From Heliocidaris erythrogramma (Eukaryota > Echinodermata > Echinoidea > Camarodonta > Echinometridae): a DNA stretch of 64,000 bases. The DNA lies in NCBI GenBank assembly GCA_025617745.1, contig CM046864.1, positions 29,445,162 through 29,509,161 on the forward strand. The letters are read 5' to 3'. The translations under genes and the position numbers were made by a program. Below are positions 4,244 to 54,364 of this stretch, in pieces (position 1 is the first letter of the stretch; each line of letters starts with the position of its first letter). Under the pieces are notes generated by a model. That model searched no databases and was not told where the DNA came from. It saw nothing but the letters and a program-made list of their open reading frames with translations.

Positions 4244-4324
4244 TTATACATGCTGTACCGTTTCCGCTACTCCGCTTCCCCTCCATCGACGCCTGCCGAA
4301 ACACCGCCTCTTCAATGCCAACAG
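4244..4324 (-). CDS. GNPTAB: GNPTAB exon 28: basic cytosolic tail and stop
   Basis: Residues 1937-1962 and TAA at 4246-4244. [16 protein letters not shown] matches vertebrate LIALKRKIFPRRRIHK; both end in a short tail with a final valine. Acceptor ATTCAG. Confidence 0.93.
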   Translation of the reverse strand: MLALKRRCFGRRRWRGSGVAETVQHV

Positions 4325-11500: not shown

Positions 11501-12789
11501 ATAAACTAATTATCAGGGTGGACTTCCTCTTTGAGTTACATGTACTGTACACTCTTGACATGATGAGGACACATCTGGAGTTCTAGTATAACACTATCCC
11601 CTAATTACCGTAGCTCCACAAAAGGCCTTCACTTTACTCTGCCTGAAGGTCAGTCAACACTACATGTATATCCGTTAGTTACACAAATGACCTTGACAAA
11701 TTAAGTCTGAAGGTCATTTAACACTAGACACTCGTGAGCTACACATATGACCTTCACAAACTCCGTCTGAAGGTCAATTAACACTATCCACTCGTTGACT
11801 AAATCAATGACCTTGACTTACTCTGCTTGAAGGTCGCTCATGATGCCGACGTCCACCATGTGGGGCATGTGAGCGGGTACCTTCCTGGCCTGGTAACCAA
11901 ACTTCTTGTTGAAGAGCTTGTTGACATGCCTGAGGGAGTCCCCGAAGGTGTCCAGGAGACGGCGTTGGGTACCACTCTGCACAGAGTACTGCTGCATGGT
12001 GTCCTGTCGCTCCAAGAGCTGAGGTGAAATCAGAGATAACTTAACCCTTTAAATACTGCCATTACATTTTACGCAACAAAGAACATTGTTATGGTGCTCC
12101 GACATATGCTTCGTCAACAATTGCTCCAGGCTTTAGTTTGTCAAAGATGTAGCTTTAGGGTGAGGGTTAGGGTGGAAGTTTGGTTGAAGTTTAGAATTTG
12201 GTTAGTGCACAAAATGACTGTGGTGCAACTGTCGCTAGAGCATGAGTCGTACAACCCACAGACATGCGTGTTACAAGAAAAGTACAATGTATGAAATGGG
12301 TTAAAACTTCTAGACAACATGTTCGCACACACAGATATATTCAACAAATGGCATTAGACTGCTCCTTATGAGGTATTTCGTCTCTCCTGAAGCACAGAGT
12401 ATAAATATAACTGTTCAAATTTATGCAGATTTATGGATGCTTCTTGCCCAAGAGCCTAGTGAAGAACTCTTGCACTCCCACCTTTTCCAATTATTGCATC
12501 TCGTCTGTTGAGAGCCAGCAGGGCGTTAACACTGTACTAAAGTATACGATTTAACACCCTTCTGGCTCCAGACAATTTCAATAGTCAGAATGCACTTTGT
12601 ACACATTACCTATTGCTATAGGTACATGTAAAAGCAAGTGGCAAGCTTTAGGGTCATCACTAGTAAGAATTGTTGTGGAGGCATGAAAAAACATATACTG
12701 CAACATATACATATACATGTATGTACATTCAAACTTGTCTTAGTGGCCACCTGCCTACAGGGGCCATCTTAATTGTCTCCCTAATAGAA

Positions 12790-12833
<44 letters not shown>

Positions 12834-15800
12834 TCGAGAACCCGTCTACAAAGCCACCTATCCACACTGGCCAATTTTTGTGTTTCCCTTGGGTGGCCTT
12901 AATAGACAGGTTTGATTGTATGTGTACTGGTCTTTTGCAGGACGAGTGGCCAGAGGGATTGCCTTCATAGTACATACCTCTACAGATTAAATTCTTGCAA
13001 AGAACAAGCCTCCATTTCAAGAATTTTGTGCGTGATGGATGCTAATTGGCATATTTGGTTCTGGTAATGCAAGGCATGAACACTGAAGAAAGCTTCTTAT
13101 AAATCCTGGGTATTCAAATGTCAACACCCATTATTGAAGCCATTATTACACTGTACTTCACTTGTACTATACCTTTATTACAAGTGGAAAGGCCAGGATG
13201 CAAATTAATCAAAAGTCCAATTGAACCAACATGTAGCATTAATTTCAGAGTGAATACAAAATCTAGCAACATTTTATTTTTGTATAAGAATGCCAAAGCA
13301 TACCTTGGTGAGATTATTGAAGCTGTCGGTGCGTTCCCATGGTAGGAAGCTGCTCTTCCGATCCTGCTCCTCCTTTTTTCTCAAAGCATCATCCTCAGCA
13401 ACAGCATTATCTTCTCTAACAGGCAGAGGGTTCTCTACCACTTCACCAGTCCACTTCTTTATCTCATGATCAGTTAAGACTTCTTGCTTGGTTGTCACGT
13501 CCATTGAGACAACCTTCTTCTTTAACTCATGATCAAGGAAACCACTTGCAATTCTCATCACAACCTGCTTCGTCCTTGTGACCCAAGCAGTCTTGCTCCT
13601 GAGGATATCCCCAGCATCACCGAGGACACCTTGATTGACTTCGCTGTCTTGAGGAACCTTCGCTTTGTCAGTAATTGTCAACAGTTTCCTGAAGCCTCTG
13701 TTATTTCTTTGGATACCACCTGCATCGCCCTGAGGATTCTGTCCTGCACCATCTCCAAGGACATTTCCTTGATCATCCTCAAAGGCCACTTCAGCTGCAT
13801 CTGGAAGCTGGAAAGGAAGGTTGTTCTGTTCCTTCAACAGATTTCCAATGTTGTTGTTGTCCATGAAGTCGTTCTCATTTCCTGGATTTACATCTGCCAC
13901 ATCCTTGTTCTGCAACTGATCTTGTGCTTGTTGGCCATCATTGTCTTCCTTCAGGTTATTGCCATTCTGGAATTGGTCTTTAATGGCGTCCTGGACGATC
14001 ACTGGATCATTGACTCCCTGGAAGCCAACTGGTGGGTTGAGAATTTCCTCTTTTCTTATCTGCGGATTTTGATCAATACTTTTTCCAAATCCTTGGTTTG
14101 GGTTAACCTGGTATACTTTAGGTGGATTTGGGTCAGCCGGGTTACCTATTTGTGGATTAAAATCTGCTGCTGGTTCAAGATCCTGGCCAACCCCAGCTAA
14201 TGGTTTAGCATCAAACACAACCTGCTGATTGAAACCGTCGATTCCATCCTGCCTTCCCATTGGTTGATTAAATGCATTCTCCTTTCCCTGGCCAACCATA
14301 CCATCAGCCACACCTTGGTCTTTTGAGATCTTGTTGCTTTTGTATGTCTCAAACTTGTCAGCAATGTGTTTGTACTTTTCTCTTGTCTCTTGTAGGTTAG
14401 GATCTTGTTTTTTCATACTTATACCTTGTTTAAGTCCTAACAGATCATCCTCACGCAGGTTCTCAAAAGCACCATCCTGACCCATCCCTCCACCCTCTTC
14501 AAGATCCTTCTCCTCCATTGGCATTCCATTTTGATTAATTTGACCAAACTTATCCGGAACCTGTCCCAAAGGCACCTCTGCTTGTCCCAGATCAAGTCGC
14601 TGTCCAAACTGCTGTTTACCCAGCCCTAGACCTCTGTGCAAACCTTGCCCAGCTACAAGCTGGTCTCCCGTATTCCCATCTGGTAGCTGTACTCCTGCTG
14701 CTTGTTGTTCCTGTCCAAGATTCAGACCAAGATTCAGACCTCCCACACCTGGACCTTGCTTTGGACCATTCCCTTCTGCGGCTTGTAATCCTCCACCTTG
14801 AACAGGTTGCCAGGCTTTCTCTAGTCCTTGTTGAATACCTTGTCCTGGTTGACCACCCTGTCCAGCATCACCCATGTTTTGTTGCATTTGGATTCCTTTG
14901 TCAAAGGCCTGACCGGGAGCAATGCCAAGATTATCTTTGTCTCCTTCTCCGACCGCCTGTCCTAAGTTAAGATTCTTCCCTGCATTATGTGCATTGCCTC
15001 CAAACATGATATCATCAAAAGCATCGGCTTCCTTTTTCAAGGCTTCTGCATTAGCCCCTAACCTCTTGCCATTACTTCCTAAATTCTGACCAAAAGCCTG
15101 CTTCCCTCCATTCTGCAAAACAGGCTGGTCCCCATTAGCATCAAGTCCTTGCTGAATCCCGCCAAAGGCATTGTCTAAAGGAAGTTTGCCACCAGTTTCT
15201 ACGGGCATTTGCTGCTGTGCTGGATTAACCACCTGGCGCGGTTCTTTGGCCAGCCTATCTTGAAATATCCCCTGACGAGCTTGATCTCTAAAACCTTGAC
15301 TGCCCTGTGGCTGCACTGGCATTTGCCCTGGCATCTGTCCCTGCATGATACCCCCTTGTTGTACAGGAGCTTGTCCAAAGGATAGCTGCCCCAATCCCAA
15401 CCCCCCATTTTGTGCTTGCCCAGCTTGAGCAAATGGCAACTGCCTGTTCCCTGCTGGCAATCCTTGTCCCACCTGTTGACCAACAACTTGTCCCTGTCCA
15501 AAACCTTGTCCTACCAACCCTACCACTGGCTGCTGAATCTGACCCTGTCCCACGTTCAGCTGCCTTGGTATTTGATCCACATCTGTGTCCTTGAATACTG
15601 CTTGTCCTTGTCCAAGTGGTTTTCCTGCTAGCCCTTTCTCCAGCTGTCCTCTGAAACCTTTCCCAGCCTGTCCAGTCTTTCCAAACTGTGGGACGACCTG
15701 CTGGTTGATAGCTCCCTGCCCAAGCTGCCCTGCTTGCCCAGCAAAGACTCCCTGCAGCTGACCTTGACCAAGAACTTGACCTTGTCCCTGACCTTGTATT

Positions 15801-18800
15801 TGACCTTGTCCACCTGTCCGTTGCACTATCTCAGGAACCCTTCCAAATTCCACCCCGTTGTCAATGATGGGTTGTTTGCCTCCATCCTGGTGAAGGCCCT
15901 GGGCAACTTCTCTCCTGCGCTTGGTATACTCTGGCGATAGCATGTACTGGGCAAGTATTTGGGATCTTAGCCGGTCATGTCCTCTCTGCGTTATATCACC
16001 TGTTTAAAAGTAATAAAAAAATTTTTAAAACGTGAATACTTACATGAGAATCAAGAACAACTATGACCTAGTATAGAGTACATCCCTTTGGACTAGTACA
16101 CCCTTGAAAGTTACTTTCTTAGGCAATTTACTACATCATGACTGAGCAGGGCATAAAAGGTGCTTTCATTAGTATACATATATTAAAATCAGTGAGGGCA
16201 TTGGTATGGGTTATCATCACAAGGTAACTTTGGAACAGTCTGATAGCCAAGGGTGCTTGGACTGTTTCGAAGTTACCGAGGGTGAATAATTATACTTATG
16301 CCCGAAAATTATGATGTGTATTGTTAGTTGTATAAAATGTTGAGGTGGATCCTTGTTGTTCTGTACAAGTGCGAAACATACTTAAGCAATGCCAAGTTTG
16401 AGTGCGCGCATTGAAATTCCTATGAAGCAAAAATGTGCGGTGAAGTACACATGTTAATGCGCCCGGTATTGCATGAAGAGTATTATAATGACTAAAGACC
16501 AGCCACTACCAAAATTACACGTTAGGCAAAATACATGCCTGGTCACGCGTACGCTCTTAGCCAACCATTTGATTACGATCTACTTCACCATTTTATATAT
16601 ACGTAGTAACTCTTGCTACAATTCTTATATCCACTTAGAATTTCACTCTTGGCACTATTTCTTACCATCCTGCAACTGCTGGGCTAATTCTTTCAGCTGA
16701 CTTGCAATAACTTCTGTTAGCTCCTCCTCTTTCGGTTCAAATGACACAGACACTTCCTTTTCTCTGGCTAGGGGTACTTTAGGACGTCTACAAGATTAAA
16801 GAAATTAGAATATACACACATTTCTTGAAATAATAAACATGCAAAAATTGGCAAATAAGGGGGGCACAACTGCTTTTAAAACCCAATGCAGCATACCTAA
16901 GAACACATAAGAAAACTATCCCCTCATCCATTGTGTTATTTACCCCCCCCCCTAAAATTTTCAACCCAAAATGACCCTTAAAAATCAGAATTTATTTTTT
17001 TATTTGCTTGTCCGAAATTTGGGAAAGTCCAAGCTATTTAGTCCCATTCATTGCCAACTACATGTACATCTAAGATAGTATTTCTGGGTCCCGTTTCATA
17101 AAACCAATATCAATGACAAGTTACGATAGTTGTTATAAGCTACTAAAATCATTGAATCTGATTGGCTAAGAACAAATTTGTCATAGTTCTGGATCAGTTG
17201 TTGTCGGTAATAAGTTTTATGAAACAGGATCCTGCTGATTGTACTAAGAAAATAGCTCTACTAGAGCTGGTATCTCTATGAAATATGAAGTAACATGATA
17301 CCTTTGATGTTAGTATACCTCCATAACTCCATAATACTTCTAATCATTGGGGATCAAAATGACCAAATATTTTTGGACTTGCCCATTTACACAATCCTGG
17401 ATTTATCCCCGCATGAACCAAAGCAGAGAGACAGAGAGAGAGAGTACATGTAGGAAGCAAGAAAGCAATCTTTATTCAAAGCCATAACAAAATGATTGAC
17501 CTCTCAAGATAAACTTACCTTCTCTCGCGCGAAATGTCGTCAAAATCAAACACTGGTTCCACTTTCTCCTCTTCCACCTTCTTGGTTTTGTTTTCTTCCT
17601 TCTCTCCATCAGGACGTTTCAAGGCAAGCAATTCCTGTTCTAGATCCTTATTCTCTTTGGTATTCACTGTCACATTGAAAGTCACCTGAAGATTCAACCA
17701 TTAAGAAATGAAATTATTCAGTTTCGAATAATACACATGACACAAGTTGCTGGAGAAATGGAAGAGCAAAAGTCACAGCATAAACTGAGTCCATTTTCTA
17801 GTCATATTCAGGAAAGCATTTTTTCTATGAGCTAAATTGATCATTTTTTCTTCTTCACATTGGCAACATGGGTATTTTATTTTAGAGCTATTTTTTTCTA
17901 ACAAAAATTCAAGTACATGTATGGACGAGTCCAAGCTAGTTTGTCCCATGCGTTACAGACAGATTTTAGTTTATCCCATGACTGCTTCAAGCTGATAGAC
18001 CCCTAGAGCTTGAATCATACTAAAGATCAAGTAAAATTATGTTTTTATGTCAGTTTATGTTCAAGATTCCATAACACAATCCCATAACACTTGGTAACGT
18101 ACAGGACAAAACTTGGACTAGGTATCTAAAAAGAATATACATTAAAGGAGTACTCCGGCCTGAAATCAATATGAATTGAATAAATAGAGTAAAATTAAAC
18201 AAATGAATAACTGAAAATTTCATCGAAATCGGATGAAAAATAATGAAGTTATGGAAATTTTAAGCTTTGCATTATTTTGGTAAAACAGTTATGTGCACGT
18301 AATCATGAATATGCATCGAGTGTGCTGATGTCATATCCCCACTTTTTCTTTTGTATTTTATTATATGAAATTTCAATTATTCAAATTTTCTGCTCCAAGC
18401 CTATAGCTACAAGGACTGACTCCTTATTTAATGTGTAAGTTCATCATTGCTGTAACTTATTTTGTTGCAAGGGAGATATTTTTTATAGACATGTATGAAA
18501 AAATGAAATAATGAAGATTTCATATAATATAGTTAAAAAAGGAAAGTGGGGACGTGACATCATCAGCTCACTCATTACATATTCATGATGACATGCATAG
18601 AACTGTTTCCCAAAATAATGCAAAACTTAAAAATTCAATAACTTCGTTATTTTTTATCGGATTTCGATGAAATTTTCAGCGTTTTGCTTGTTTAATTTTA
18701 CTCTATTTATTCAATTAATATTATTTTCAGGCCGGAGTACCCCTTTAACAAAAACTAAGTTGAAGAGACTAATGAAACTGACTGATTACGTAGTACAAGA

Positions 18801-21800: not shown

Positions 21801-24800
21801 TGTCTAAAGCTAAAAAGAGACCAATCGTAAGGAAACAAAGCGATTTCAATTTTTAACGTAAAGCCAACTGGAGGATCTTCATGTTTATTTTTCTACTAAA
21901 AACTCCTAGCATCTAGTGCCATATGCTTATGCAATGAAAACGAACACACAGAGTGCAGCAGGAATATTTAATCTTTCTTTTCATGGTAAATGTATATTTT
22001 GAATAAAATTTAAAAATATTGAGATACACATGTGAACCACAAAATGCGGGTAATGAGCCAACTAACGTGGCTGGCAAAGACTGAGATTGAAGACGGTGAA
22101 TGGTATTACTTACTCTGTTCCATATTAGATCCTCCTCCCTGTACACCACCAATGGCACCACCCTGGGCTGATACACCTGGGGGAAGGGATGAGGACAATA
22201 AATGTTTAAAGGTAGAGGTTTGCATGGTGGTACTGATAACGTGGAGTAGGTTTTATGGTTCACCATGTGGTTAGACCTGAAAAGGACTATTGAGTAAGAA
22301 GAAGAAAGTGGAGAAAAGTTGAGAGGAGAAGAAAAGGAAAGGCGAGATAGAAATTCAGAGGGTGCAGAAGTAATCTTTCTTGAAAGTGTGAAGTCCTGAA
22401 AAGGACCGTAAACCAGATTCCACTTTCTTCTTCTTACTCAATAGTCCTTTTCAGGACTAACCACATGGTGAACCGTAAACCTTCTCCACGTTAATAAAGG
22501 TTTTAATTACCTGCTGAAAAATGAAGAATGTACAAAACTCTACTGTTTGGCTAGATATTTGTGCTCTTAACGACTTCCTAGACACTAGATTTACCAACAA
22601 TTACCATCACAGGAAAACGTTCTGATTAGAGTTTAGGGGTATATGCGTCAGAGGTTAAAGGTCAAAAGGGTCTATTTCCATGAAACTACAGGTCTTTAAT
22701 GGCCTCATTATCGTGATATCTTGAAAACCGTTTGAGGTATAAACTCCAAACTTGGTGATAGTATGTATCACCATAAGTAGACTGATGGGTTTTGTGGATA
22801 GGTAGGTCAAAGGTCAATGAACTTTCAACCATCAAATATTGAATTTTCATTCGTGTAATTGTTGGATGAGGGGAAAACATAACCTCCCAAGGGAATAATC
22901 TTTAAAATACGTGTACATGTTTCAGTTTCTCGGTGAAAGAACACCCGATTCTAAGCCCAAACGTCAAGTTCATCATTCAAATTCTTAGGCGGGATTCGCT
23001 GCCCATGGCAAAGAAGGGTTAAGATGGACCCCAAATATTTGTCTTGCTGCAATCTCATAGTCAGTCGAAACAAACTTTGTTCAATTGCTAATAATAGCCC
23101 CTAGTGCTTCCAGACTAAGGCGCAAAGGTTTTTACTACAGTGGCTGACATCTTACATGTCACATTAAATGGGAAGTCCATCCTCAGATTTAGGTGGTCTT
23201 AAAATCATAACAGTTTGAGCAAAATCCGATAAAAAATGAGAAAGTTATAAATTCTAGAAGTTGTCGTCGATCAAACACATTTGGCATCTCTGCGAAATAT
23301 CTTTCAAGGTCGTCCTCCATTTGAACTGAAAATTTTCAAAAAATTCCAATTTCTTAGTTGTTGATGAAGGAATAGATTTGTTCATACAGGGGCTGTGTAA
23401 AAACATATTTGCAATGATTATATCAAGGATGCATGTCCGATTAAACATTCCCTCTGGAGAAGATAAAAATTTATAATTTTTTTTTTAGTACAGGGTGAAT
23501 GGAAGAGAACCTCACGAGATACGTCAGCGTTGCCAATTTGTGTTTGATCGATTACAACTTCAAAAATTAACTTTCTTATTTTCCATCGGATTTTGCTCAA
23601 ACTTTCACTGGTCCATTTTTAAAAAAATTCTGCTTCCATTCGAACCAGCTTAATATCAGGGTGGACTTCTCTTTAAGGTTTAACAGGTTATAATTGTCTT
23701 ACCTTCACAATCGCCACCATCCCATTCACATTCTGAATTGTTGCACGCCTTGTCGCAGTAATTATCCTTGATCCATGACGATGGACACCCCTCAGCACAA
23801 TTTGGAACAGGCCATGTCAAATATACCTGGATACAAAATAACCAGGGCACATCTAATATCACTGTCACACCGCCAAACCGACAGATTCTTGGCCATTGGT
23901 GGCAATGCAATGTTTTGTTCGGTCTGTTGTCGGTCTGACGTCGGTTTGACTGTGGTATAACGATCCTCCTTTTCAGAAAACTCTTTATGGCATTTATTAT
24001 TATTAATATAATTATCATATTAGTAGTATATTATTAGAGTACATTATGAGTGGTACATGCACATGTATGACATCATTCTCTACAAAGATCAATATATATC
24101 ATTAAAAGTATTATCATTACTACTTCTATTAATATCGATTTTGTTTTTATCATAGTGATATTTAAAATCATCATCATCGTAATCATCATCATCGTTACCT
24201 TTTGCCCCGAGGCATGTGAGTAGAAATCATCCGGCCAGATATCCTTTCCAAACATGGTGTCGTCATTGAGGTAAATAAATTTCTTGGACAGTCCTGGAAT
24301 CCGATGGATATGAGATTCAATGGCAGGGGAACTGAAGGTGGGAAGGTGGGACATATTTAGGAATATCTCCTGCAATTCAAGACAAAATACAATTACATGT
24401 AAATAAAAAGGAAATGAGTTACAATGGTTTCCTTCAATCATAATGACAGTATCTGAAACGTAGCTTAAAGAGAATTGACCCAATTTGCCGAAAAGCACAT
24501 GCTCTGCACACAGAAATGGATACATGGTACTGCACACTGTCAAGTGGCATGAATGGGCGGCCCAAAGTATTCCTGCTATTTCTCGTCATATTTCGAATAT
24601 GATGGAATTTGAAGAGCAATCTTTTTTTAGGGATGTTTCTACTATGATGTTCTTTCAAACCGACATAAAAGGAATGAGATGGTTGACAAATTATTTTTTA
24701 TCTTTCCCAGAACTCAACCTTCCCTTTAACTTAGTCCACTACAACCACCCCAACCCAAGTCATAAGTTTAAAGAAAGGTAGAGTACTGGCAAAGTTTAAA

Positions 24801-54100: not shown

Positions 54101-54364
54101 AAACCTAACCTAAAACCCAATTGCAACCTTAAAGCTAACCCTTATTAAACTTTGACGAAATAAAGCATATAATATCACTGGCTAATGCTTGACCCACTGC
54201 AAATAGCAGACGCTTTAATGAAAAGCGGGCCAACATTCTAAATTTCTTACCTCTCCAAACTGAAACGCTGAGACGATGACTAGGACGATACCACTGAAGA
54301 TGAGGAGAATACCATAGCGATGAGAGAGGAATGTATACGTCTGCTTCTGAACTATCTTGAACAT
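4244..54364 (-). CDS. GNPTAB: GlcNAc-1-phosphotransferase alpha/beta precursor, 28 coding exons
   Basis: Product: Golgi type III membrane precursor that transfers GlcNAc-1-phosphate from UDP-GlcNAc to mannose on lysosomal hydrolases; with a gamma subunit (GNPTG, not in this window) it forms the alpha2beta2gamma2 enzyme. Exons join in frame to 1,962 residues. Seen: N-terminal anchor about 17-34; Stealth CR1 with [10 protein letters not shown] at 74-83; CR2 about 329-429; LNR modules about 439-469 and 494-524; DMAP1-binding-like segment about 695-735; Gln/Gly/Asn-rich insert about 777-1580; RRLL|D site-1-protease site at 1635/1636; CR3 with [10 protein letters not shown] at 1658-1667; EF-hand loop 1725-1736; CR4 about 1856-1890; C-terminal anchor about 1914-1934; basic tail. 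Residues reported essential in human (E389, D408, H956, R986) align with E390, D409, H1663, R1693. Human is about 1,256 residues; the excess is exon 20. Identity is certain; individual splice sites were read by eye. Confidence 0.95.
4384..4445. repeat. ATC/TCA microsatellite in intron 27
   Basis: (TCA)n run close to exon 28. It creates a spurious polymethionine frame that reads into exon 28. Confidence 0.85.
4512..4906. mobile_element. about 390 bp foldback repeat, family R (copy 1)
   Basis: Shares TTGGAAGAACATCATAGCAG, TCGAAATATGAC and CCACATGTGTGTGCAGT blocks with copies at 6331-6735, 24395-24736, 24768-25182 and the interrupted copy 27877-29253. Ends carry inverted TTGAGTTCT-type motifs. 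No protein. Confidence 0.7.
5024..5114 (-). CDS. GNPTAB: GNPTAB exon 27: C-terminal membrane anchor
   Basis: Residues 1906-1936. [18 protein letters not shown] then a hydrophobic stretch, matching vertebrate RAYRDKLKFWTHCVLATL. Acceptor TTATAG, donor GTAAGT, phase 0. Confidence 0.93.
5341..5552. mobile_element. foldback element, TACAGT-AACCTG family (copy 3)
   Basis: GGTGAAACCTGTCTATAAAG at the left and CAGGTTTCACTGTA at the right, with internal AAAGACCAC/GTGGTCTTT inversions. In intron 26, 60 bases from the exon 26 donor. Confidence 0.8.
5612..5779 (-). CDS. GNPTAB: GNPTAB exon 26: Stealth CR4
   Basis: Residues 1850-1906. [16 protein letters not shown] followed by [19 protein letters not shown] is almost invariant against vertebrates and is Stealth CR4. 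Acceptor TTTTAG, donor GTAAGT, phase 2 with W1906 split. Confidence 0.97.
6331..6735. mobile_element. family R foldback repeat (copy 2)
   Basis: In intron 25. Same block order as copy 1, same orientation. Confidence 0.7.
6819..6917 (-). CDS. GNPTAB: GNPTAB exon 25
   Basis: Residues 1817-1850. [20 protein letters not shown] and [13 protein letters not shown] match vertebrate [19 protein letters not shown] and [13 protein letters not shown]. Acceptor TTTTAG, donor GTAAGT, phase 2. Confidence 0.97.
7506..7794. mobile_element. MITE with CCCTTATAAAAAAATACC ends (copy 1)
   Basis: 289 bp in intron 24. Ends CCCTTATAAAAAAATACCAT and inverted ATGGTACTTTTTTGTAAGGG; interior full of ATGGTA/TACCAT. A second copy in opposite orientation is at 34572-34802. 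Confidence 0.8.
7888..8025. mobile_element. 138 bp perfect-ended foldback MITE (GGGGAGC family)
   Basis: GGGGAGCATTTCATCAAGCG left, CGCTTGATGAAACGCTCCCC right; TTTTTACCGACA/TTGTCAGTAAAAA inner inversion, ATTGGCTGA core. In intron 24, about 105 bases before the exon 24 donor. Confidence 0.88.
8130..8215 (-). CDS. GNPTAB: GNPTAB exon 24
   Basis: Residues 1789-1817. [18 protein letters not shown] matches vertebrate PPVTKSLVTNCKPVTDKI. Acceptor CTACAG, donor GTGAGT, phase 2. A long purine (GA) tract lies immediately upstream in the intron. Confidence 0.95.
8222..8545. repeat. GA-rich purine tract in intron 23
   Basis: Strand-asymmetric AGAGAG/GAGAAAG run of about 320 bases next to exon 24; on the minus strand it is a very long polypyrimidine tract directly in front of the exon 24 acceptor. 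Produces serine/leucine shadow frames. Confidence 0.85.
9313..9487 (-). CDS. GNPTAB: GNPTAB exon 23: EF-hand end
   Basis: Residues 1730-1788. [18 protein letters not shown] is nearly identical to vertebrates and completes a canonical 12-residue EF loop (D1725, D1727, S1729, E1736). Ends with KYYEEKM. Donor GTGAGC. Confidence 0.97.
9534..10800. mobile_element. long member (1.27 kb) of the TACAGT-AACCTG family
   Basis: Starts TACAGTCAAACCTGTCTATA and ends CCAGGTTTGACTGTA, with GGCCGC palindromes at both ends. Unlike the roughly 200 bp copies it has a 1.1 kb unique interior with no convincing protein. Lies in intron 22, 47 bases from exon 23. Confidence 0.75.
11039..11191 (-). CDS. GNPTAB: GNPTAB exon 22: CR3 end and EF-hand start
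   Basis: Residues 1679-1730. [19 protein letters not shown] matches vertebrate [19 protein letters not shown] (R1693 = human R986). [10 protein letters not shown] starts the EF-hand loop. Acceptor GAAG is weak upstream (T-rich tract then GAAG); donor GTAAGT. Confidence 0.95.
11600..11835. repeat. four-copy 60 bp tandem repeat that includes the exon 21 donor
   Basis: GAAGGTC occurs at 11645, 11709, 11769 and 11829 (spacing 64, 60, 60). Copies share TGACCTT..AC.AA/TT...CTGAAGGTCA..CAACACT. The last copy is the real exon 21/intron 21 boundary. Confidence 0.8.
11822..12018 (-). CDS. GNPTAB: GNPTAB exon 21: alpha/beta cleavage site and Stealth CR3
   Basis: Residues 1614-1679. Contains [22 protein letters not shown] is a strong site-1-protease (MBTPS1) motif at the exact position of the human K928|D929 cleavage, so the beta subunit would start at D1636. 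CR3 follows with [10 protein letters not shown] (H1663 = human H956). Acceptor CTCAG, donor GTAAGT, phase 2. The donor region is repeated in the next intron. Confidence 0.97.
12724..12920. mobile_element. foldback element, TACAGT-AACCTG family (copy 5), with TA microsatellite
   Basis: TACATTCAAACTTGTCTTAG left, GACAGGTTTGATTGTA right; interrupted by a (TA)n run at about 12794-12826. In intron 20. Confidence 0.7.
13304..15999 (-). CDS. GNPTAB: GNPTAB exon 20: giant Gln/Gly/Asn-rich exon
   Basis: Residues 715-1613 from one exon of 2,696 bases, open throughout. It starts [14 protein letters not shown] (end of the DMAP1-binding-like segment). From about residue 777 to 1215 it is an imperfect Gly-Gln repeat (GQGQ, LGQG, AGQ), then a more Asn/Asp/Gln/Pro-rich part with a lysine-rich block near 1240. 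After about residue 1440 it regains ordinary composition (FRKLL..., HELKKK) and ends [17 protein letters not shown], matching vertebrate GFLPWEKKKYFQDLL. The vertebrate counterpart between the same two anchors is only roughly 100 residues long. The DNA repeat is a degenerate CAAGGN/CAGGGN hexamer, so slippage is a likely origin. Topology puts it in the Golgi lumen, at the C-terminal end of the alpha subunit. Confidence 0.93.
16000..16665. other. intron 19, nothing recognised
   Basis: Plain intronic sequence with one imperfect inverted segment near 16220-16280 (GGTAACTTTGGAACAGTC / GACTGTTTCGAAGTTACC). Confidence 0.5.
16666..16787 (-). CDS. GNPTAB: GNPTAB exon 19: start of DMAP1-binding-like segment
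   Basis: Residues 674-714. Acidic region with [18 protein letters not shown] leading into GDIT of exon 20, equivalent to vertebrate LQLEHGDITLKGYNLSKS in the DMAP1-binding region. Acceptor TTGTAG, donor GTAAGA, phase 1. Confidence 0.9.
17096..17232. mobile_element. foldback MITE, GTTTCATAAAAC subfamily (copy 1)
   Basis: GGGTCCCGTTTCATAAAACC left and GTTTTATGAAACAGGATCC right, with the same GTTATAAGCTACT...ATTGGCT core as the GGGGAGC family. In intron 18. Confidence 0.8.
17519..17685 (-). CDS. GNPTAB: GNPTAB exon 18: charged segment
   Basis: Residues 619-674. Starts [14 protein letters not shown] (compare MQITVEVDT in vertebrates), continues as a Lys/Glu-rich run and ends [13 protein letters not shown] (compare ILFEDIPKEKRF). 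Donor GTAAGT, phase 2. Confidence 0.92.
18142..18748. mobile_element. 607 bp foldback MITE with about 200 bp inverted arms
   Basis: Ends TTAAAGGAGTACTCCGGCCT and its inverse AGGCCGGAGTACCCCTTTAA. Arms remain complementary through ATTTCATCGAAATCGGATG and a GTGGGGA...TCATGA region. Intron 17. Confidence 0.88.
19401..19609 (-). CDS. GNPTAB: GNPTAB exon 17
   Basis: Residues 549-618. [15 protein letters not shown]... and [16 protein letters not shown] match vertebrate YFSFAEVAKRG and HASIANKWKTIHLIMH. Two sequons (NAT, NMS) are visible. Acceptor ACCCAG, donor GTAAGT. Confidence 0.94.
19719..19858. mobile_element. foldback MITE, GGGGAGC family (copy 2)
   Basis: GGGGAGCGTTTCATCAAGAG / CTTGATGAAACGCTCCCC, same core as 7888-8025. 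Intron 16. Confidence 0.88.
20137..20280. mobile_element. partial GTTTCATAAAAC foldback MITE
   Basis: Left end ACTGTTTCATAAAACTTGTT and the ATTGGCTGTATAGCAAAT core are present; the right end is missing or decayed. Confidence 0.5.
20847..20961 (-). CDS. GNPTAB: GNPTAB exon 16: LNR module 2, second half
   Basis: Residues 511-548. [15 protein letters not shown] completes the second LNR (C512, C517, C524), followed by a beta-rich segment. Acceptor ACCAG, donor GTAAAA, phase 1. A purine-rich tract fills the intron upstream. Confidence 0.96.
20965..21285. repeat. purine-rich GA tract in intron 15
   Basis: GAGGAAGAAGAAAAG-type sequence of about 320 bases directly upstream of the exon 16 acceptor; pyrimidine-rich on the coding strand. 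Confidence 0.8.
21569..21624 (-). CDS. GNPTAB: GNPTAB exon 15: LNR module 2, first half
   Basis: Residues 492-510. [18 protein letters not shown] closely matches vertebrate YCNQGCANSWLADKFCDQ. Acceptor TTACAG, donor GTGAGT. Confidence 0.96.
22114..22176 (-). CDS. GNPTAB: GNPTAB exon 14: glycine-rich linker between LNRs
   Basis: Residues 471-491, [20 protein letters not shown], equivalent to the Gly-rich linker of vertebrate GNPTAB. Acceptor CCCCAG, donor GTAAGT. Phase 1 at both ends. Confidence 0.92.
22196..22497. mobile_element. foldback repeat with CACGTTA ends (copy 1)
   Basis: Inverted arms include GGTTCACCATGTGGTTAG and CTGAAAAGGACTATTGAGTA. A second copy at 29876-30215 is in the opposite orientation and extends the match through CATGCAAACCTCTACCTT. 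Intron 13. Confidence 0.75.
23165..23676. mobile_element. 512 bp foldback MITE, AGTCCA family (copy 1)
   Basis: TGGGAAGTCCATCCT left versus AGGGTGGACTTCTCTTTAA right; shared inner AGTTTGAGCAAAATCCGAT and GATTACAACTTC arms. Same family as 53549-54102. Ends 26 bases from exon 13. Confidence 0.8.
23703..23826 (-). CDS. GNPTAB: GNPTAB exon 13: LNR (Notch-like) module 1
   Basis: Residues 430-470. [15 protein letters not shown] then a six-cysteine LNR (C439, C443, C453, C457, C462, C469) with [13 protein letters not shown]. LNRs bind calcium and in this enzyme help recognise lysosomal substrates. Donor GTAAGA, phase 1. Confidence 0.97.
24199..24369 (-). CDS. GNPTAB: GNPTAB exon 12: Stealth CR2, second half
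   Basis: Residues 373-429. Contains [16 protein letters not shown] and [13 protein letters not shown] followed by WPDDF. E390 and D409 align with human E389 and D408, reported as needed for catalysis. Acceptor TTGCAG, donor GTAACG. Confidence 0.97.
24395..24736. mobile_element. family R foldback repeat (copy 3, reverse)
   Basis: Reverse orientation; carries CATATTTCGAATATG and TGTCAAGTGGCATGAATG blocks. In intron 11, close to the exon 12 acceptor. Confidence 0.65.
24768..25182. mobile_element. family R foldback repeat (copy 4)
   Basis: Forward copy, more diverged, ending AGAACTAAATTTATC; immediately followed by the TTAA-flanked repeat at 25183-25600. Confidence 0.6.
25183..25600. mobile_element. 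MITE-like repeat with TTAACCCTTTC ends
   Basis: TTAACCCTTTCGTGACA left, TCCTGAAAGGGTTAA right. CCC ends inside TTAA suggest a piggyBac-type non-autonomous element. Related diverged sequence at 31030-31345 (reverse) and 39360-39585. Confidence 0.6.
25747..25878 (-). CDS. GNPTAB: GNPTAB exon 11: Stealth CR2, first half
   Basis: Residues 329-372. [15 protein letters not shown] and [16 protein letters not shown] are near-identical to vertebrate GNPTAB and diagnostic of Stealth CR2. Acceptor TTCCAG, donor GTAAGT. Confidence 0.97.
26267..26320 (-). CDS. GNPTAB: GNPTAB exon 10
   Basis: Residues 311-328, 18 codons. Ends NRFEDNE, matching vertebrate SRFEDNE just before the CR2 block. Acceptor TTGTAG, donor GTACCA (weak after the GT). 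Confidence 0.92.
26505..26960. repeat. tandem repeat, about 92 bp unit, five copies
   Basis: Unit contains TCACTCAATCTGGGACCAAT, ACTTTTATCCTGCAAAATTG and CACCCCTTGGAATACCACAA. Copies begin near 26505, 26597, 26690, 26784 and 26877; the last is diverged. Intron 9. Confidence 0.85.
27101..27870. repeat. tandem-repeat element, CCATGGCAA family (copy 1)
   Basis: About 160 bp unit repeated four times (CCATGGCAATGCAGTTTCC, AATATGTCTTGCACATCT, CCAATGTGTGTGCC, GAGGAAGTAGTTTGATCCGC). Left end CTAGAATATCACTGAAGG...ATACCCCCGCCCC. The right end is truncated at CAACAGACCGACCG. Same family as 52292-53316. Confidence 0.85.
28102..29103. mobile_element. GGCCCGTATTCTGAAC MITE, interrupted copy
   Basis: Ends GCCCGTATTCTGAACTTCGG and GAGTTCAGAATACGGGC. 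Intact sister at 45990-46301. Interrupted at its TTAA by the element 28127-28885. Confidence 0.85.
28127..28885. mobile_element. piggyBac-like non-autonomous element (copy A)
   Basis: Starts CCCTAATAG and ends CTATTAGGG, flanked on both sides by TTAA (28123-28126, 28886-28889). The uninterrupted sister MITE shows a single TTAA there, so TTAA is the target duplication. Subterminal GC hairpins (GGGCGGAATCCGCCC). No transposase. 97-99% like copy B by eye. Confidence 0.85.
29264..29332 (-). CDS. GNPTAB: GNPTAB exon 9: spacer, KAYLVWNM motif
   Basis: Residues 288-310. [14 protein letters not shown] matches vertebrate LTISPAYLLWDLSA. Acceptor CTCACAG, donor GTAAGA, phase 0. Confidence 0.92.
29670..29817. 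mobile_element. foldback MITE, GTTTCATAAAAC subfamily (copy 2)
   Basis: GGGCCCCGTTTCATAAAACT left, TTTCATGAAACAGGGCCC right; ATTGGCTCTCAGCCAAT core. Intron 8. Confidence 0.85.
29876..30215. mobile_element. foldback repeat with CACGTTA ends (copy 2, inverted)
   Basis: GGTTCACCATGTGGTTAG left, inverted CTAACCACATGGTGAACC right, then CCACGTTATCAGTACCACCA. Ends about 25 bases from the exon 8 donor. Confidence 0.75.
30241..30318 (-). CDS. GNPTAB: GNPTAB exon 8: spacer
   Basis: Residues 262-287, [19 protein letters not shown]..., similar in layout to vertebrate SEASVALLKLNNPKDFQEL. Consensus CCTAG acceptor and GTAAGT donor, phase 0 at both ends. Confidence 0.87.
30745..30876 (-). CDS. GNPTAB: GNPTAB exon 7: spacer
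   Basis: Residues 218-261 ([20 protein letters not shown]...SYQEKIGE). Acceptor GATAG, donor GTAAGT, phase 0 at both ends. It fits the poorly conserved vertebrate spacer before CR2; assignment rests on phase, position and the neighbouring exons. Confidence 0.85.
31446..32196. mobile_element. piggyBac-like non-autonomous element (copy B, 3' truncated)
   Basis: Same sequence as 28127-28885, preceded by TTAA (31442-31445), but stops at GGTCCTAT without the terminal TAGGGTTAA, so the right end has been lost. Intron 6. Confidence 0.85.
32197..32922. other. intron 6 remainder, nothing firm
   Basis: GC-richer segment 32197-32480 follows the truncated TTAA element, then plain sequence up to exon 6. 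No domain seen in any frame. Confidence 0.45.
32923..32985 (-). CDS. GNPTAB: GNPTAB exon 6: spacer
   Basis: Residues 197-217, [21 protein letters not shown]. Two acceptors seven bases apart are possible (ACAG and TTCCAG). Only the downstream one keeps the frame: the upstream one reads into TGA within eight codons. Donor GTGAGT. Confidence 0.78.
33077..33150 (-). CDS. GNPTAB: GNPTAB exon 5: spacer
   Basis: Residues 172-196 ([19 protein letters not shown]...KGYI). Aligns loosely with vertebrate DVEDAHSGLLKG...RGYL. Acceptor TTTCAG, donor GTAAGT. Ends in phase 0 and is followed by an unusually short intron of 91 bases. Confidence 0.85.
33434..33584. mobile_element. foldback MITE, GTTTCATAAAAC subfamily (copy 3)
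   Basis: GGGCCCTGTTTCGTAAAACT left, GTTTTATCAAAAGGGGCCC right; GTTATAAGCTACTGAAATCC and ATTGGCTGA core. Intron 4. Confidence 0.85.
34452..34543 (+). pseudogene. exon-like N-terminus inside the degenerate transposon
   Basis: ATG followed by 30 codons ([16 protein letters not shown] ... TLDFFIQ) ending at a consensus donor AG|GTAAGG. The xTLDFF ending resembles the start of some hAT or zinc-finger transposases, but the continuation cannot be found in the remaining sequence, so this is at best a remnant. Confidence 0.35.
34572..34802. mobile_element. MITE with CCCTTATAAAAAAATACC ends (copy 2, inverted, nested)
   Basis: CCCGTACAAAAAAGTACCAT left, ATGGTATTTTTTTATAAGGG right; same family as 7506-7794 in the opposite orientation, inserted into the transposon at 33803-35504. 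Confidence 0.8.
36241..36976. mobile_element. 736 bp element with CAGTGGCGTATCTAGG ends
   Basis: CAGTGGCGTATCTAGG left and CCTAGATACGCCACTG right, a 16 bp inverted repeat typical of non-autonomous hAT-like elements. Flanking octamers CTGAAATG and CCAAAATG agree at six of eight positions. Ends 31 bases from the exon 4 donor. Confidence 0.78.
37008..37186 (-). CDS. GNPTAB: GNPTAB exon 4: spacer after CR1
   Basis: Residues 112-171, starting [14 protein letters not shown] and ending with a lysine/glutamate-rich stretch. It corresponds to the vertebrate spacer around LECLLTHCIKVPML. Sequence similarity is low, but length, cysteine position and reading phase (2 in, 1 out) fit. Contains a NIT sequon. 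Confidence 0.85.
37924..38231. mobile_element. TACAGT-AACCTG foldback abutting the exon 3 donor, with nested foldback
   Basis: AAGTGAAACCTGCTTTAGCG left; AGGTTTCACTGTA right. The right end overlaps position +6 of intron 3. A second small foldback is nested at about 38038-38142 (GGCGTAAATCC...GGATTTACGCC-type arms). Confidence 0.8.
38237..38371 (-). CDS. GNPTAB: GNPTAB exon 3: Stealth CR1
   Basis: Residues 67-111. Contains [17 protein letters not shown], the Stealth conserved region 1 signature, followed by a charged spacer ending DNST (a sequon). The donor is GTTAGT; a foldback element begins six bases into the intron (see 37924-38231). Confidence 0.95.
38532..38950. repeat. tandem duplication of about 210 bp in intron 2
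   Basis: Two diverged copies share TTAGGACA.GTTTGACTGGGCA, ACAAACAAACAAA, TTTCACTTTTCTAAGGTG and AATTGCTGG blocks. Confidence 0.75.
39229..39314 (-). CDS. GNPTAB: GNPTAB exon 2: juxtamembrane segment
   Basis: Residues 39-67, [15 protein letters not shown]... matching vertebrate VVLEWSRDQYHVLFD. Acceptor TTACAG and donor GTAAGA are both consensus. It lies 14.9 kb downstream of exon 1. Ends in phase 2. Confidence 0.94.
39315..40327. other. first part of intron 1 (3' end), repeat fragments only
   Basis: Contains a diverged copy of the CCTTTC/TTAA repeat (39360-39585), an ATAATAATAA-GTATAGCGC SINE-like fragment (39790-39900) and CATGTACATG runs. Confidence 0.5.
40328..40504. mobile_element. 177 bp foldback MITE, TAATGGGGTGTTGC ends
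   Basis: A perfect inverted repeat of about 25 bases (starts TAATGGGGTGTTGCAAG, ends CTTGCAACACCCCATTA) around a TTGCAACTGATCGG-type core. Confidence 0.9.
41296..41473. mobile_element. foldback element, TACAGT-AACCTG family (copy 7)
   Basis: TACAGTGAAACCTGTCTATA left, AGCAGGTTTCACTGTA right, AAAGACCAC subfamily; very similar to 5341-5552. Confidence 0.85.
43304..43374 (+). repeat. tRNA-like module 1 (in unit A)
   Basis: A-box TGGTCTATTGG, anticodon arm CACTTGC-CTCCCAT-GCAGGTG (loop would give CCC), B-box GGTTCGATCCC, 3' end GGGTCCA then a T-run. No matching 5' acceptor strand, so not a functional tRNA gene. Confidence 0.7.
43770..44290. repeat. ATC/ATG microsatellite field (unit A)
   Basis: Interrupted (ATC)n and its complement (GAT)n blocks, with CACTGTCATGATGATATTCA repeated as a higher-order unit. 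Confidence 0.9.
45731..45797 (+). repeat. tRNA-like module 2 (in unit B)
   Basis: TGGTATATTGGTCAAAGC, GGTTCGATCCCCGG and GGGTCCA; anticodon arm degraded. Followed by A/T-run. Confidence 0.65.
45990..46301. mobile_element. GGCCCGTATTCTGAAC MITE, intact copy
   Basis: 312 bp with inverted ends of about 38 bases (GGCCCGTATTCTGAACTC..). Flanked by ATT on both sides (45987-45989, 46302-46304). Unit C at about 49750 has the empty site AGCTATTGGG. Confidence 0.92.
46720..47587. mobile_element. 868 bp foldback element with nested tRNA-like element
   Basis: CCCTGATAGCAGAAAGTG left, ACATTTTCTGCTATCAGGG right; arms of about 200 bases with TTTACGTCGTGGTTTTCGTC and TTGACGT.AATTACAGGACG. A further element (46935-47436) is nested at the centre. 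Confidence 0.85.
46935..47436. mobile_element. inner element with an inverted pair of tRNA-like sequences
   Basis: Ends TACACTGTAAAAACTGAAGT and inverse ACTTTAGTTTTTATAGTATA. Internal tRNA-like sequences at 47098-47152 (minus; A-box TAGTCTAGCGG) and 47263-47330 (plus; A-box TAGTCCATCGG, B-box GGTTCGAGGCT, T10). Confidence 0.7.
49501..49567 (+). repeat. tRNA-like module 3 (in unit C)
   Basis: TGGTCTATTGGTTATAGC, GGTTCGATCCCCGG, GGGTCCA followed by T14. Same context as modules 1 and 2. Confidence 0.68.
49965..51110. repeat. ATC/ATG microsatellite field (unit C)
   Basis: About 1.1 kb of higher-order repeats built of ATGATTATCATCAACATC, ATTATCATCATCACTGTC and ATGATATTCATGATGATG. Confidence 0.9.
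51287..52291. other. intron 1 segment, nothing recognised
   Basis: Begins with a (TAT)n run (51286-51345), then plain AT-rich sequence. Confidence 0.5.
52292..53316. repeat. tandem-repeat element, CCATGGCAA family (copy 2)
   Basis: Five units of 161-178 bp (CCATGGCAACGCAGATTCC at about 52430, 52590, 52770, 52930, 53100). Left end ATATCACTGAAG...ATACCCCCGCCCC, right end TTTCAGTGATTCC...GGCGGGGGTATAAT, giving inverted termini around a tandem core. Confidence 0.85.
53549..54102. mobile_element. 554 bp foldback MITE, AGTCCA family (copy 2)
   Basis: AAAGGGAAAGTCCACCCGGG left, CAGGGTGAACTTGCCCTTT right; arms share AGTTTGAGCAAAATC and TACAACTTCAAAAATTC. Lies 149 bases inside the exon 1 donor. Confidence 0.85.
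54251..54364 (-). CDS. GNPTAB: GNPTAB exon 1: start codon and N-terminal membrane anchor
   Basis: Residues 1-38, from ATG at 54364-54362 to the donor GTAAGA. The protein begins [18 protein letters not shown], matching the cytosolic start of vertebrate GNPTAB, then a hydrophobic segment (about 17-34) and AFQFGE. An in-frame TAG lies three codons upstream of the ATG, which fixes the start. Phase 0 end. Confidence 0.95.

What the first reader, a model, noticed from the sequence alone, without database searches (positions are those of the whole stretch)
13304..15999. GNPTAB with an enormous Gly-Gln/Asn-rich lumenal insert in one exon
Seen: a single exon of 2,696 bases, open for 899 codons, with both ends matching vertebrate GNPTAB and phase-correct splice sites. 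Between these anchors vertebrates have roughly 100 residues; here there are over 800, mostly imperfect GQ/LGQG/NQ repeats. Known: this region lies between the DMAP1-binding region and the alpha/beta cleavage site, in the Golgi lumen. Inference: a lineage-specific disordered, possibly condensing or substrate-tethering domain in the enzyme that starts lysosomal targeting. I know of no description of it.
Basis: partly seen in the sequence, partly recalled or inferred. Interest (0 to 1): 0.82.

Follow-up and report, generated by a model that had tools for sequence, protein, structure and literature searches.

The report
GNPTAB with giant glycine-glutamine insert
In what is most likely a sea urchin, the enzyme that tags digestive enzymes for delivery to the lysosome carries an extra stretch of about 700 residues, rich in glycine and glutamine, inside a region that in humans helps recognise those enzymes; the stretch looks real and old, but what it does is unknown.

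Summary
On the minus strand, window 13304-15999 is one 2,696-base exon of an otherwise normal GNPTAB gene: 25 exons splice without an internal stop, and two upstream exons give 1,946 residues. Between the flanking homologies human GNPTAB has 97 residues; here there are 815. The mitochondrial contig points to an echinoderm, most likely a sea urchin.

New points. (1) The insert lies inside the Pfam DMAP-binding domain: the first half is kept; the second, detectable in human, is not found. (2) Its first 208 residues keep a two-residue Gly/Gln alternation, suggesting an old (GGN-CAR)n expansion. (3) Exact DNA repeats barely exceed synonymous shuffles, so it is old. (4) Residues 693-1392 have 14 Ser/Thr in 700, no Cys and no N-glycosylation sequon. 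(5) NQ is not enriched. (6) Two queries covering residues 633-1525 find only this locus in the genome.

Most likely a long, unglycosylated, flexible alpha-subunit tail. Condensation or tethering is possible but untested. No echinoderm relative could be searched, so lineage specificity is open.

The parts
13304..15999 (-). Giant exon (19th coding exon of 27 in my model); codes for model residues 633-1530 (full-length about 700-1597)
   Evidence: open over 898 complete codons, splice sites in phase, spliced model without internal stop
16666..16787 (-). Preceding exon, coding for the first part of the retained DMAP_binding match
15920..15997 (-). Remainder of the retained DMAP_binding match (profile 11-50; model residues 633-658)
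15194..15817 (-). Gly-X / Gly-Gln region with two-residue periodicity (model residues 693-900)
   Evidence: G-G z 5.2 (2 of 2000), G-Q z -5.8 (0 of 2000), Q-Q z 5.4 (0 of 2000)
14564..15193 (-). Gly/Gln-rich region with weak remaining alternation (901-1110)
   Evidence: (tested as 900-1110): only G-G keeps a signal, z 2.7, 18 of 2000; one control region outside the exon reaches z 2.4
14204..14563 (-). Charged linker (1111-1230), K/D/E-rich with Gly and Gln
13694..14203 (-). Asn/Gln/Gly/Asp/Pro-rich acidic region (1231-1400)
13304..13693 (-). K/V/T-rich end of the exon (1401-1530), re-entering homology with human at KKWTG...FLPWE
   Evidence: BLASTP E 8e-13 for a stretch that continues into the next exon
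13454..13535 (-). Direct duplication 63 bases apart (DHELKKK / DHEIKKW), 18 of 19 bases identical in the matched core
   Evidence: family D4
11953..11964 (-). RRLL before DTF (model 1549-1552): site-1-protease-like cleavage motif, in the exon after the giant one
   Evidence: aligned to the human alpha/beta junction; motif preference recalled
24199..24369 (-). Exon with the catalytic NDD motif (FIYLNDD)
   Evidence: NDD role from PMC11418123 passages
11822..12018 (-). Exon with the alpha/beta junction and the VPAHMPHM histidine (position of human His-956)
4244..4324 (-). Last coding exon and stop codon
39229..39314 (-). Second coding exon ([14 protein letters not shown]...)
54251..54364 (-). 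First coding exon ([18 protein letters not shown]...), N-terminal membrane anchor
   Evidence: tblastn E 2e-14 with the human N-terminus typed from recall

Best explanation
This is the real GNPTAB orthologue of an echinoderm, most likely a sea urchin. Its alpha subunit has a low-complexity tail of about 700 residues grown inside the exon that follows the DMAP hairpin. Shown: the open coding exon, the flanking homology, absence of a detectable second half of the DMAP domain, Ser/Thr/Cys depletion, and the residual Gly/Gln two-residue periodicity. Inferred: the tail began as a hexanucleotide (GGN-CAR)n expansion coding for (Gly-Gln)n. It then diversified over a long time at a site where catalysis is not disturbed. 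After cleavage at the RRLL site it stays as a long, flexible, unglycosylated alpha-subunit tail in the Golgi lumen, acting mainly as a spacer. Substrate choice then rests on the Notch repeats, the DMAP hairpin and the gamma subunit.
For: Open frame and phases. Flanks, catalytic motifs and S1P-like site retained. Insert boundary by Pfam: human halves score 63.7 and 31.9 bits, the window keeps only profile 11-50. Alternation in 693-1110 survives a first-order Markov control at lags 3-12 (G-G 4 of 2000, G-Q 17 of 2000, Q-Q 5 of 2000). Identical 9-mer pairs 88 against a mean of 71.6 in synonymous shuffles (95 of 1000 reach it), and no identical 15-mer: old, not a live satellite. Ser+Thr 14 of 700 against 127 of 981 elsewhere, Fisher p 7e-18 (region limits chosen after seeing the sequence); Cys 0; sequons 0 against 15. 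The 3' intron falls at the same place as that of human exon 13, which is the longest human exon at 1,103 bp (PMC5035076 passages; position computed). [quoted passage not shown] Pathway partners exist in the genome: GNPTG, CD-MPR-like, CI-MPR-like.
Against: No transcript, no protein data and no second species. Disorder rests on composition; FoldIndex is positive (+0.07, +0.15) in two of the Gly/Gln-richest windows. The same truncated human construct loses some substrate specificity, so change in this region need not be harmless. The strong loss of Ser/Thr/Cys and the maintained Gly/Gln content could mean selection for a property beyond spacing. The period-2 pattern is also what a beta-strand-forming silk-like sequence would show.
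Confidence: 0.55

Rival explanations
1. The insert is a functional self-associating or substrate-tethering domain. Gly-X alternation gives silk-like beta pairing or weak Gln/Asn contacts that concentrate the enzyme or its hydrolase substrates in the Golgi, taking over part of the role of the lost DMAP half.
For: Two-residue alternation over 208 residues; Gly/Gln composition kept although DNA repeats have eroded; no N-glycan sequons and few Ser/Thr to interfere; positive FoldIndex in two of the Gly/Gln-richest windows; it replaces half of a domain described as substrate-recognising (PMC11418123 passages).
Against: No experiment. Q+N reaches only 27 per 80 residues. The G-Q and Q-Q alternation is confined to 693-900. 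No match in PDB sequences, Pfam or NCBIfam (residues 809-1525 only).
Confidence: 0.15
2. Most of the insert is an exitron: it is spliced out in most transcripts, leaving a short tail like the human one.
For: In-frame GT-AG pairs exist; the best removes 1,962 bases (offsets 237 to 2199), with an acceptor score of 9.1 against a leave-one-out median of 8.1 for the gene's real acceptors. The exon's own donor is weak (5.1). The best pair of any frame scores 16.1 (91 bases, out of frame), above the weakest real intron.
Against: The best in-frame pair scores 15.2, under all 24 modelled introns (15.7 to 28.0, in-sample), and 107 of 200 synonymous shuffles do as well or better. The best internal donor (7.0) is matched or beaten by 192 of 200 shuffles. 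No internal pair has both sites above the lower quartiles of real sites.
Confidence: 0.1
3. The insert came from another gene or mobile element.
For: None found.
Against: Two queries covering model residues 633-831 and 809-1525 find only their own locus in the 1.06-Gb genome; the tool skips simple repeats, so low-complexity copies could be missed. No family match. Composition and periodicity point to growth in place.
Confidence: 0.03
4. Assembly artefact or decayed gene.
For: No reads were available to check.
Against: 25 exons splice without an internal stop. The repeats are too degenerate for a typical misassembly: TRF (minimum score 40) finds in the exon only arrays of 2 to 8.3 short units, and there is no identical 15-mer pair.
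Confidence: 0.03

Closest known systems
Human GNPTAB (GlcNAc-1-phosphotransferase alpha/beta, PDB 7s05)
   Same: Aligns over both flanks; the window protein has Stealth CR1-CR4, two Notch repeats and GlcNAc-1_reg, the NDD motif and His-956 position, the cleavage-site position, and the same 3' intron position of the large exon
   Different: 815 instead of 97 residues between the flanks; second half of the DMAP domain not detectable; insert poor in Ser/Thr (2%) against 18% in human 752-848
Drosophila GNPTAB homologue (7dxi, FI02838p)
   Same: Catalytic core aligns
   Different: Lacks the DMAP domain and the S1P sequence and did not act in vivo on the two lysosomal hydrolases tested (PMC11418123 passages)
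Gly-X silk-like or glycine-rich repeat proteins (recalled)
   Same: Gly at alternate positions beyond chance in the strongest part
   Different: X is mostly Gln/Leu/Val/Ala; irregular; embedded in a Golgi enzyme; beta structure not shown
Q/N-rich prion-like domains (recalled)
   Same: Gln/Asn enrichment, low complexity
   Different: Gly is the commonest residue; 27 Q+N per 80 at most; in the secretory lumen, not the cytosol

Membership tests
GNPTAB | Stealth CR1, CR2, CR3, CR4 | tested here: met
   44.9, 152, 53.1 and 82.2 bits, all over the cut-offs
GNPTAB | Two Notch (LNR) repeats | tested here: met
   two stretches, 56.2 bits
GNPTAB | Complete DMAP_binding domain | tested here: not met
   only profile 11-50 of 111; 25.6 bits in the whole protein (cut-off 27), 30.7 in the isolated segment. 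The Drosophila homologue lacks the domain too, so I do not treat it as required
GNPTAB | EF-hand region | tested here: inconclusive
   five EF-hand models match within 1634-1660 at E 0.016 to 0.24, all under their cut-offs; the stretch aligns to human
GNPTAB | Catalytic NDD and His-956 | tested here: met
   roles from PMC11418123 passages
GNPTAB | S1P cleavage between alpha and beta | tested here: inconclusive
   RRLL|DTF aligned at the junction; cleavage itself not testable
Prion-like Q/N-rich domain | At least 30 Q+N in 80 residues (recalled criterion) | tested here: not met
   maximum 27
Gly-X silk-like repeat | Gly at alternate positions beyond chance | tested here: met
   residues 693-900 for G-G, G-Q and Q-Q; 900-1110 only G-G, weakly
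Gly-X silk-like repeat | Beta-sheet assembly | not testable with these tools
   Structure prediction switched off
Collagen-like | Gly every third residue | tested here: not met
   Gly 35, 27, 34 in the three phases of 693-1110

The most novel reading that the evidence does not exclude
In this echinoderm the phosphotransferase has traded the second half of its DMAP substrate-recognition domain for a long, glycan-free, silk-like Gly-X tail that self-associates in the Golgi lumen and concentrates the enzyme with its hydrolase substrates: a scaffold built into the enzyme that starts lysosomal sorting.
Probability: 0.12. Interest if true: 0.78.

Novelty: new variant of a known kind. Interest (0 to 1): 0.42.

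Why it matters
How the phosphotransferase picks lysosomal hydrolases out of many glycoproteins is attributed to its Notch, DMAP and gamma parts (PMC11418123 passages). A natural enzyme from a genome that has GNPTG and both receptor types, but without a detectable second DMAP half, gives a direct test of which part of DMAP matters. In human the missing half holds S782, and S782F was reported in three mucolipidosis III patients. If the tail assembles, it would be a built-in scaffold for a Golgi enzyme.

Tried and rejected
Collagen-like repeat: rejected, no three-residue Gly phase. Prion-like by Q/N count: not met. Captured domain or paralogous source: none found in the genome for residues 633-1525. 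Recent satellite expansion: rejected, though near 12-mer matches are raised (22 of 500 synonymous shuffles reach it) and near 9-mers slightly (51 and 53 of 500), as expected if traces of the old repeat remain. Noncoding open frame: rejected. Structure-based search: not possible. Exon 13 skipping in human c.2715+1G>A as evidence that the region is dispensable: dropped on checking, because 1,103 bases is not a multiple of three, so skipping shifts the frame, and the allele also occurs in mucolipidosis II. My confidence in the best explanation went from 0.6 to 0.55 for this and for the FoldIndex windows. Relatives in genome contigs and viral contigs: one scan each with the beta-subunit region. 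In the first, 21 stretches matched a pattern and none was confirmed; in the second, none matched. Both collections are the wrong kind for animals, so this says nothing about echinoderms. Rfam over the window: no match.

Literature, all ten searches, open-licence papers only. GNPTAB with insertion, invertebrate and DMAP: 0. GlcNAc-1-phosphotransferase with DMAP, spacer and GNPTAB: 3. GNPTAB with sea urchin: 1, unrelated by its listing. Phosphotransferase with echinoderm and sorting terms: 0. Hockey stick with GlcNAc-1-phosphotransferase: 1. GNPTAB with cryo-EM terms: 4. c.2715+1G with GNPTAB and exon 13: 2. Low-complexity Golgi condensates: 0. Sea urchin with 1.06 Gb: 1, unrelated by its listing. 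N-acetylglucosamine-1-phosphotransferase with Strongylocentrotus: 2, one seen as 12 of 22 passages with no mention of an insert in those, the other only in the listing. Seen as passages: PMC11418123, PMC5035076 (12 of 16 places), PMC6994554. No other paper was opened.
Full report
What is there. The gene lies on the minus strand. I located 25 exons from the Stealth CR1 exon to the stop and spliced them in a script. One frame runs 1,879 residues to the final stop; the other two have 127 and 82 stops. Two more exons upstream (54251-54364 and 39229-39314) complete an N-terminus like the human one, for 1,946 residues in all. Residue numbers below are those of the 1,879-residue model; add 67 for full length. 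Pfam finds Stealth CR1-CR4, two Notch repeats, GlcNAc-1_reg and a partial DMAP_binding; EF-hand models match within 1634-1660 only weakly (E 0.016 or worse, under the cut-offs). PDB phmmer puts human GNPTAB first (E 2.4e-293). The NDD motif and the His-956 position named in PMC11418123 (passages) are present.

The exon. Of the 25 exons in the script model, 24 are 54 to 209 bases and one is 2,696. Its frame has no stop in 898 codons; the other five frames have 37, 62, 20, 34 and 33, and the longest open run over 300 dinucleotide shuffles is 228 codons. GC at third positions is 0.405 against 0.518 in the other exons. Its 3' end falls ten residues after FLPWE in phase 0. In human the matching place is codon 905, the end of exon 13 (c.2715+1; passages). 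That human exon is the longest of the gene at 1,103 bp, so the intron position is shared while the length is not.

Where the insert sits. The human segment 692-962 carries a DMAP_binding match over profile 2-110 (100.5 bits). Cut in two, the halves score 63.7 (profile 2-50) and 31.9 bits (49-110), both over the cut-off of 27. The window protein matches only 11-50, at 25.6 bits in the whole protein and 30.7 in the isolated segment. The last 141 residues of the exon match no Pfam family. So the insert starts inside the Pfam domain, after the GDIT hairpin, and the second half is lost, replaced or beyond recognition. In human that half holds S782; S782F was reported in three mucolipidosis III patients. 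The homology resumes at KKWTG...FLPWE (BLASTP E 8e-13 for a stretch that continues into the next exon).

What it is made of. Residues 693-1110: Gly 23%, Gln 20%, then Leu, Ala, Val, Pro. Residues 1110-1230: Gly 14%, Gln 11%, and many charged residues. Residues 1230-1400: Asn 15%, Gln 12%, Gly 11%, Asp 11%, Pro 9%. Residues 1400-1531: Lys, Val, Leu, Asp, Thr, more ordinary. Ser+Thr are 14 of 700 in 693-1392 against 127 of 981 in the model outside the exon (Fisher p 7e-18; limits chosen after seeing the sequence). There is no Cys and no NxS/T in that stretch, against 15 sequons outside the exon; one sequon lies at the exon's end, at 1527. Part of the Thr shortage would follow from descent from Gly and Gln codons, but Ser is one transition from GGY, as Asp is, and Asp is common, so descent alone does not explain it (inference). 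FoldIndex is -0.02 for the exon against 0.10 for the rest. By 75-residue windows it runs from -0.30 to +0.15, with +0.07 and +0.15 at 708-782 and 783-857, so it does not mark that Gly/Gln-rich part as disordered.

Origin. In 693-900 Gly-Gly pairs favour even distances and Gly-Gln odd ones: z 5.2, -5.8, and Gln-Gln 5.4. The signal for 693-1110 remains at lags 3 to 12 against shuffles (0, 0 and 1 of 2000) and against first-order Markov chains (4, 17 and 5 of 2000). In 900-1110 only Gly-Gly is left (z 2.7, 18 of 2000); in 1110-1400 there is none. As controls outside the exon, 1-632 shows nothing and 1532-1879 shows a Gly-Gly z of 2.4 (54 of 2000), so the 900-1110 value is not strong. A two-residue period is a six-base period, and TRF still sees a six-base array at 15759-15808. 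The simplest origin is a (GGN-CAR)n expansion. It is old: Gln codons split 49:51, Gly uses all four codons, identical 9-mer pairs are 88 against 71.6 in synonymous shuffles (95 of 1000 reach it), and there is no identical 15-mer pair. Near 12-mer matches are raised (22 of 500) and near 9-mers slightly (51 and 53 of 500), traces of the old repeat.

Is it spliced out? With matrices from this gene's own splice sites, the best in-frame internal pair scores 15.2; the 24 modelled introns score 15.7 to 28.0 in-sample, and 107 of 200 synonymous shuffles score at least as high. The best internal donor (7.0) is reached by 192 of 200 shuffles. Against this reading: the best internal acceptor (9.1; 32 of 200 shuffles reach it) is as good as real ones, the exon's own donor is weak (5.1), and the best pair of any frame, 91 bases and out of frame, scores 16.1. 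Splicing out is therefore not expected but not excluded.

The animal and its pathway. The window lies in a 1.064-Gb assembly of 26 contigs. On contig C24 COX1 reads with the echinoderm code: AAA gives Asn at positions where animals have Asn (recalled). The frames on that contig, named by eye, follow the order nad2, cox1, nad4L, cox2, atp6, cox3, nad3, nad4, nad5. Order and COX1 resemble sea urchins from recall; sea cucumbers share the order, so 'sea urchin' is likely, not proven. The genome also has GNPTG: three exon matches on C5, and in the fetched locus further weaker matches (E 0.009 and 2e-4) that include a DMAP-like hairpin. The CD-MPR profile gives 10 matches: three on C13 within 6.3 kb, taken as the CD-MPR-like gene, six on C18 and one on C17 with stops, not followed. 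The CIMR profile gives 12 matches, all on C6 over about 50 kb. In the CD-MPR-like exons the Arg, Glu and Tyr of M6P binding appear kept and the Gln is not evident; this is a by-eye comparison with recalled human sequence. The insert has no second copy that the search could find: residues 633-831 and 809-1525 each match only this locus, with the reservation that the tool skips simple repeats.

How it most likely works. I commit to a long flexible alpha-subunit tail that is tolerated because the region is not needed for catalysis. [quoted passage not shown] With no sequons, no Cys and few Ser/Thr, the tail would pass the secretory route with little modification. Whether it does more (clustering, tethering) is open.

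Limits. One genome, no transcripts, no reads, no related species, no structure prediction. 'Lineage-specific' is therefore not shown: among the PDB matches only human spans this region.

Verdict. Interest 0.42: low-complexity growth in a permissive region is common in animal proteins (general knowledge), but the loss of half a substrate-recognition domain in an animal that seems to keep the pathway is worth testing.

Noticed in passing
window 9531-10803: A 1.27-kb element in a GNPTAB intron with inverted ends (arms 9531-9550 and 10784-10803, 90% over 20 nt, plus a 23-nt perfect pair); similar ends recur in other introns by eye (about 1.8-2.4, 5.3-5.5, 12.9 and 38 kb). It recalls a pogo/Tigger-like nonautonomous transposon (recalled, not tested).
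   Followed up: partly
window 28171-28807 and 31485-32121: Two copies of a repeat (two 300-nt blocks each, 96% and 97% identical, same 3,314-base spacing) with G- and C-rich ends, inside introns of the same gene.
   Followed up: partly
window 13454-13472 and 13517-13535: Direct duplication 63 bases apart near the exon end (DHELKKK.../DHEIKKW...), 18 of 19 bases identical and so probably younger than the Gly/Gln repeats.
   Followed up: no
L004 (G000 C13): CD-MPR-like exons keep residues that look like the Arg, Glu and Tyr of the M6P site; the Gln is not evident (by eye against recalled human sequence).
   Followed up: partly
G000 C18, six places, and C17: Further matches to the Man-6-P_recep profile (29.9 to 34.3 bits), outside the CD-MPR-like gene; the six on C18 cover about the same profile part (169-213).
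   Followed up: no
G000 C5:7491101-7497573 (L019): GNPTG orthologue with up to 69% identity to the recalled human sequence in one exon and a DMAP-like hairpin downstream (E 0.009 and 2e-4).
   Followed up: partly
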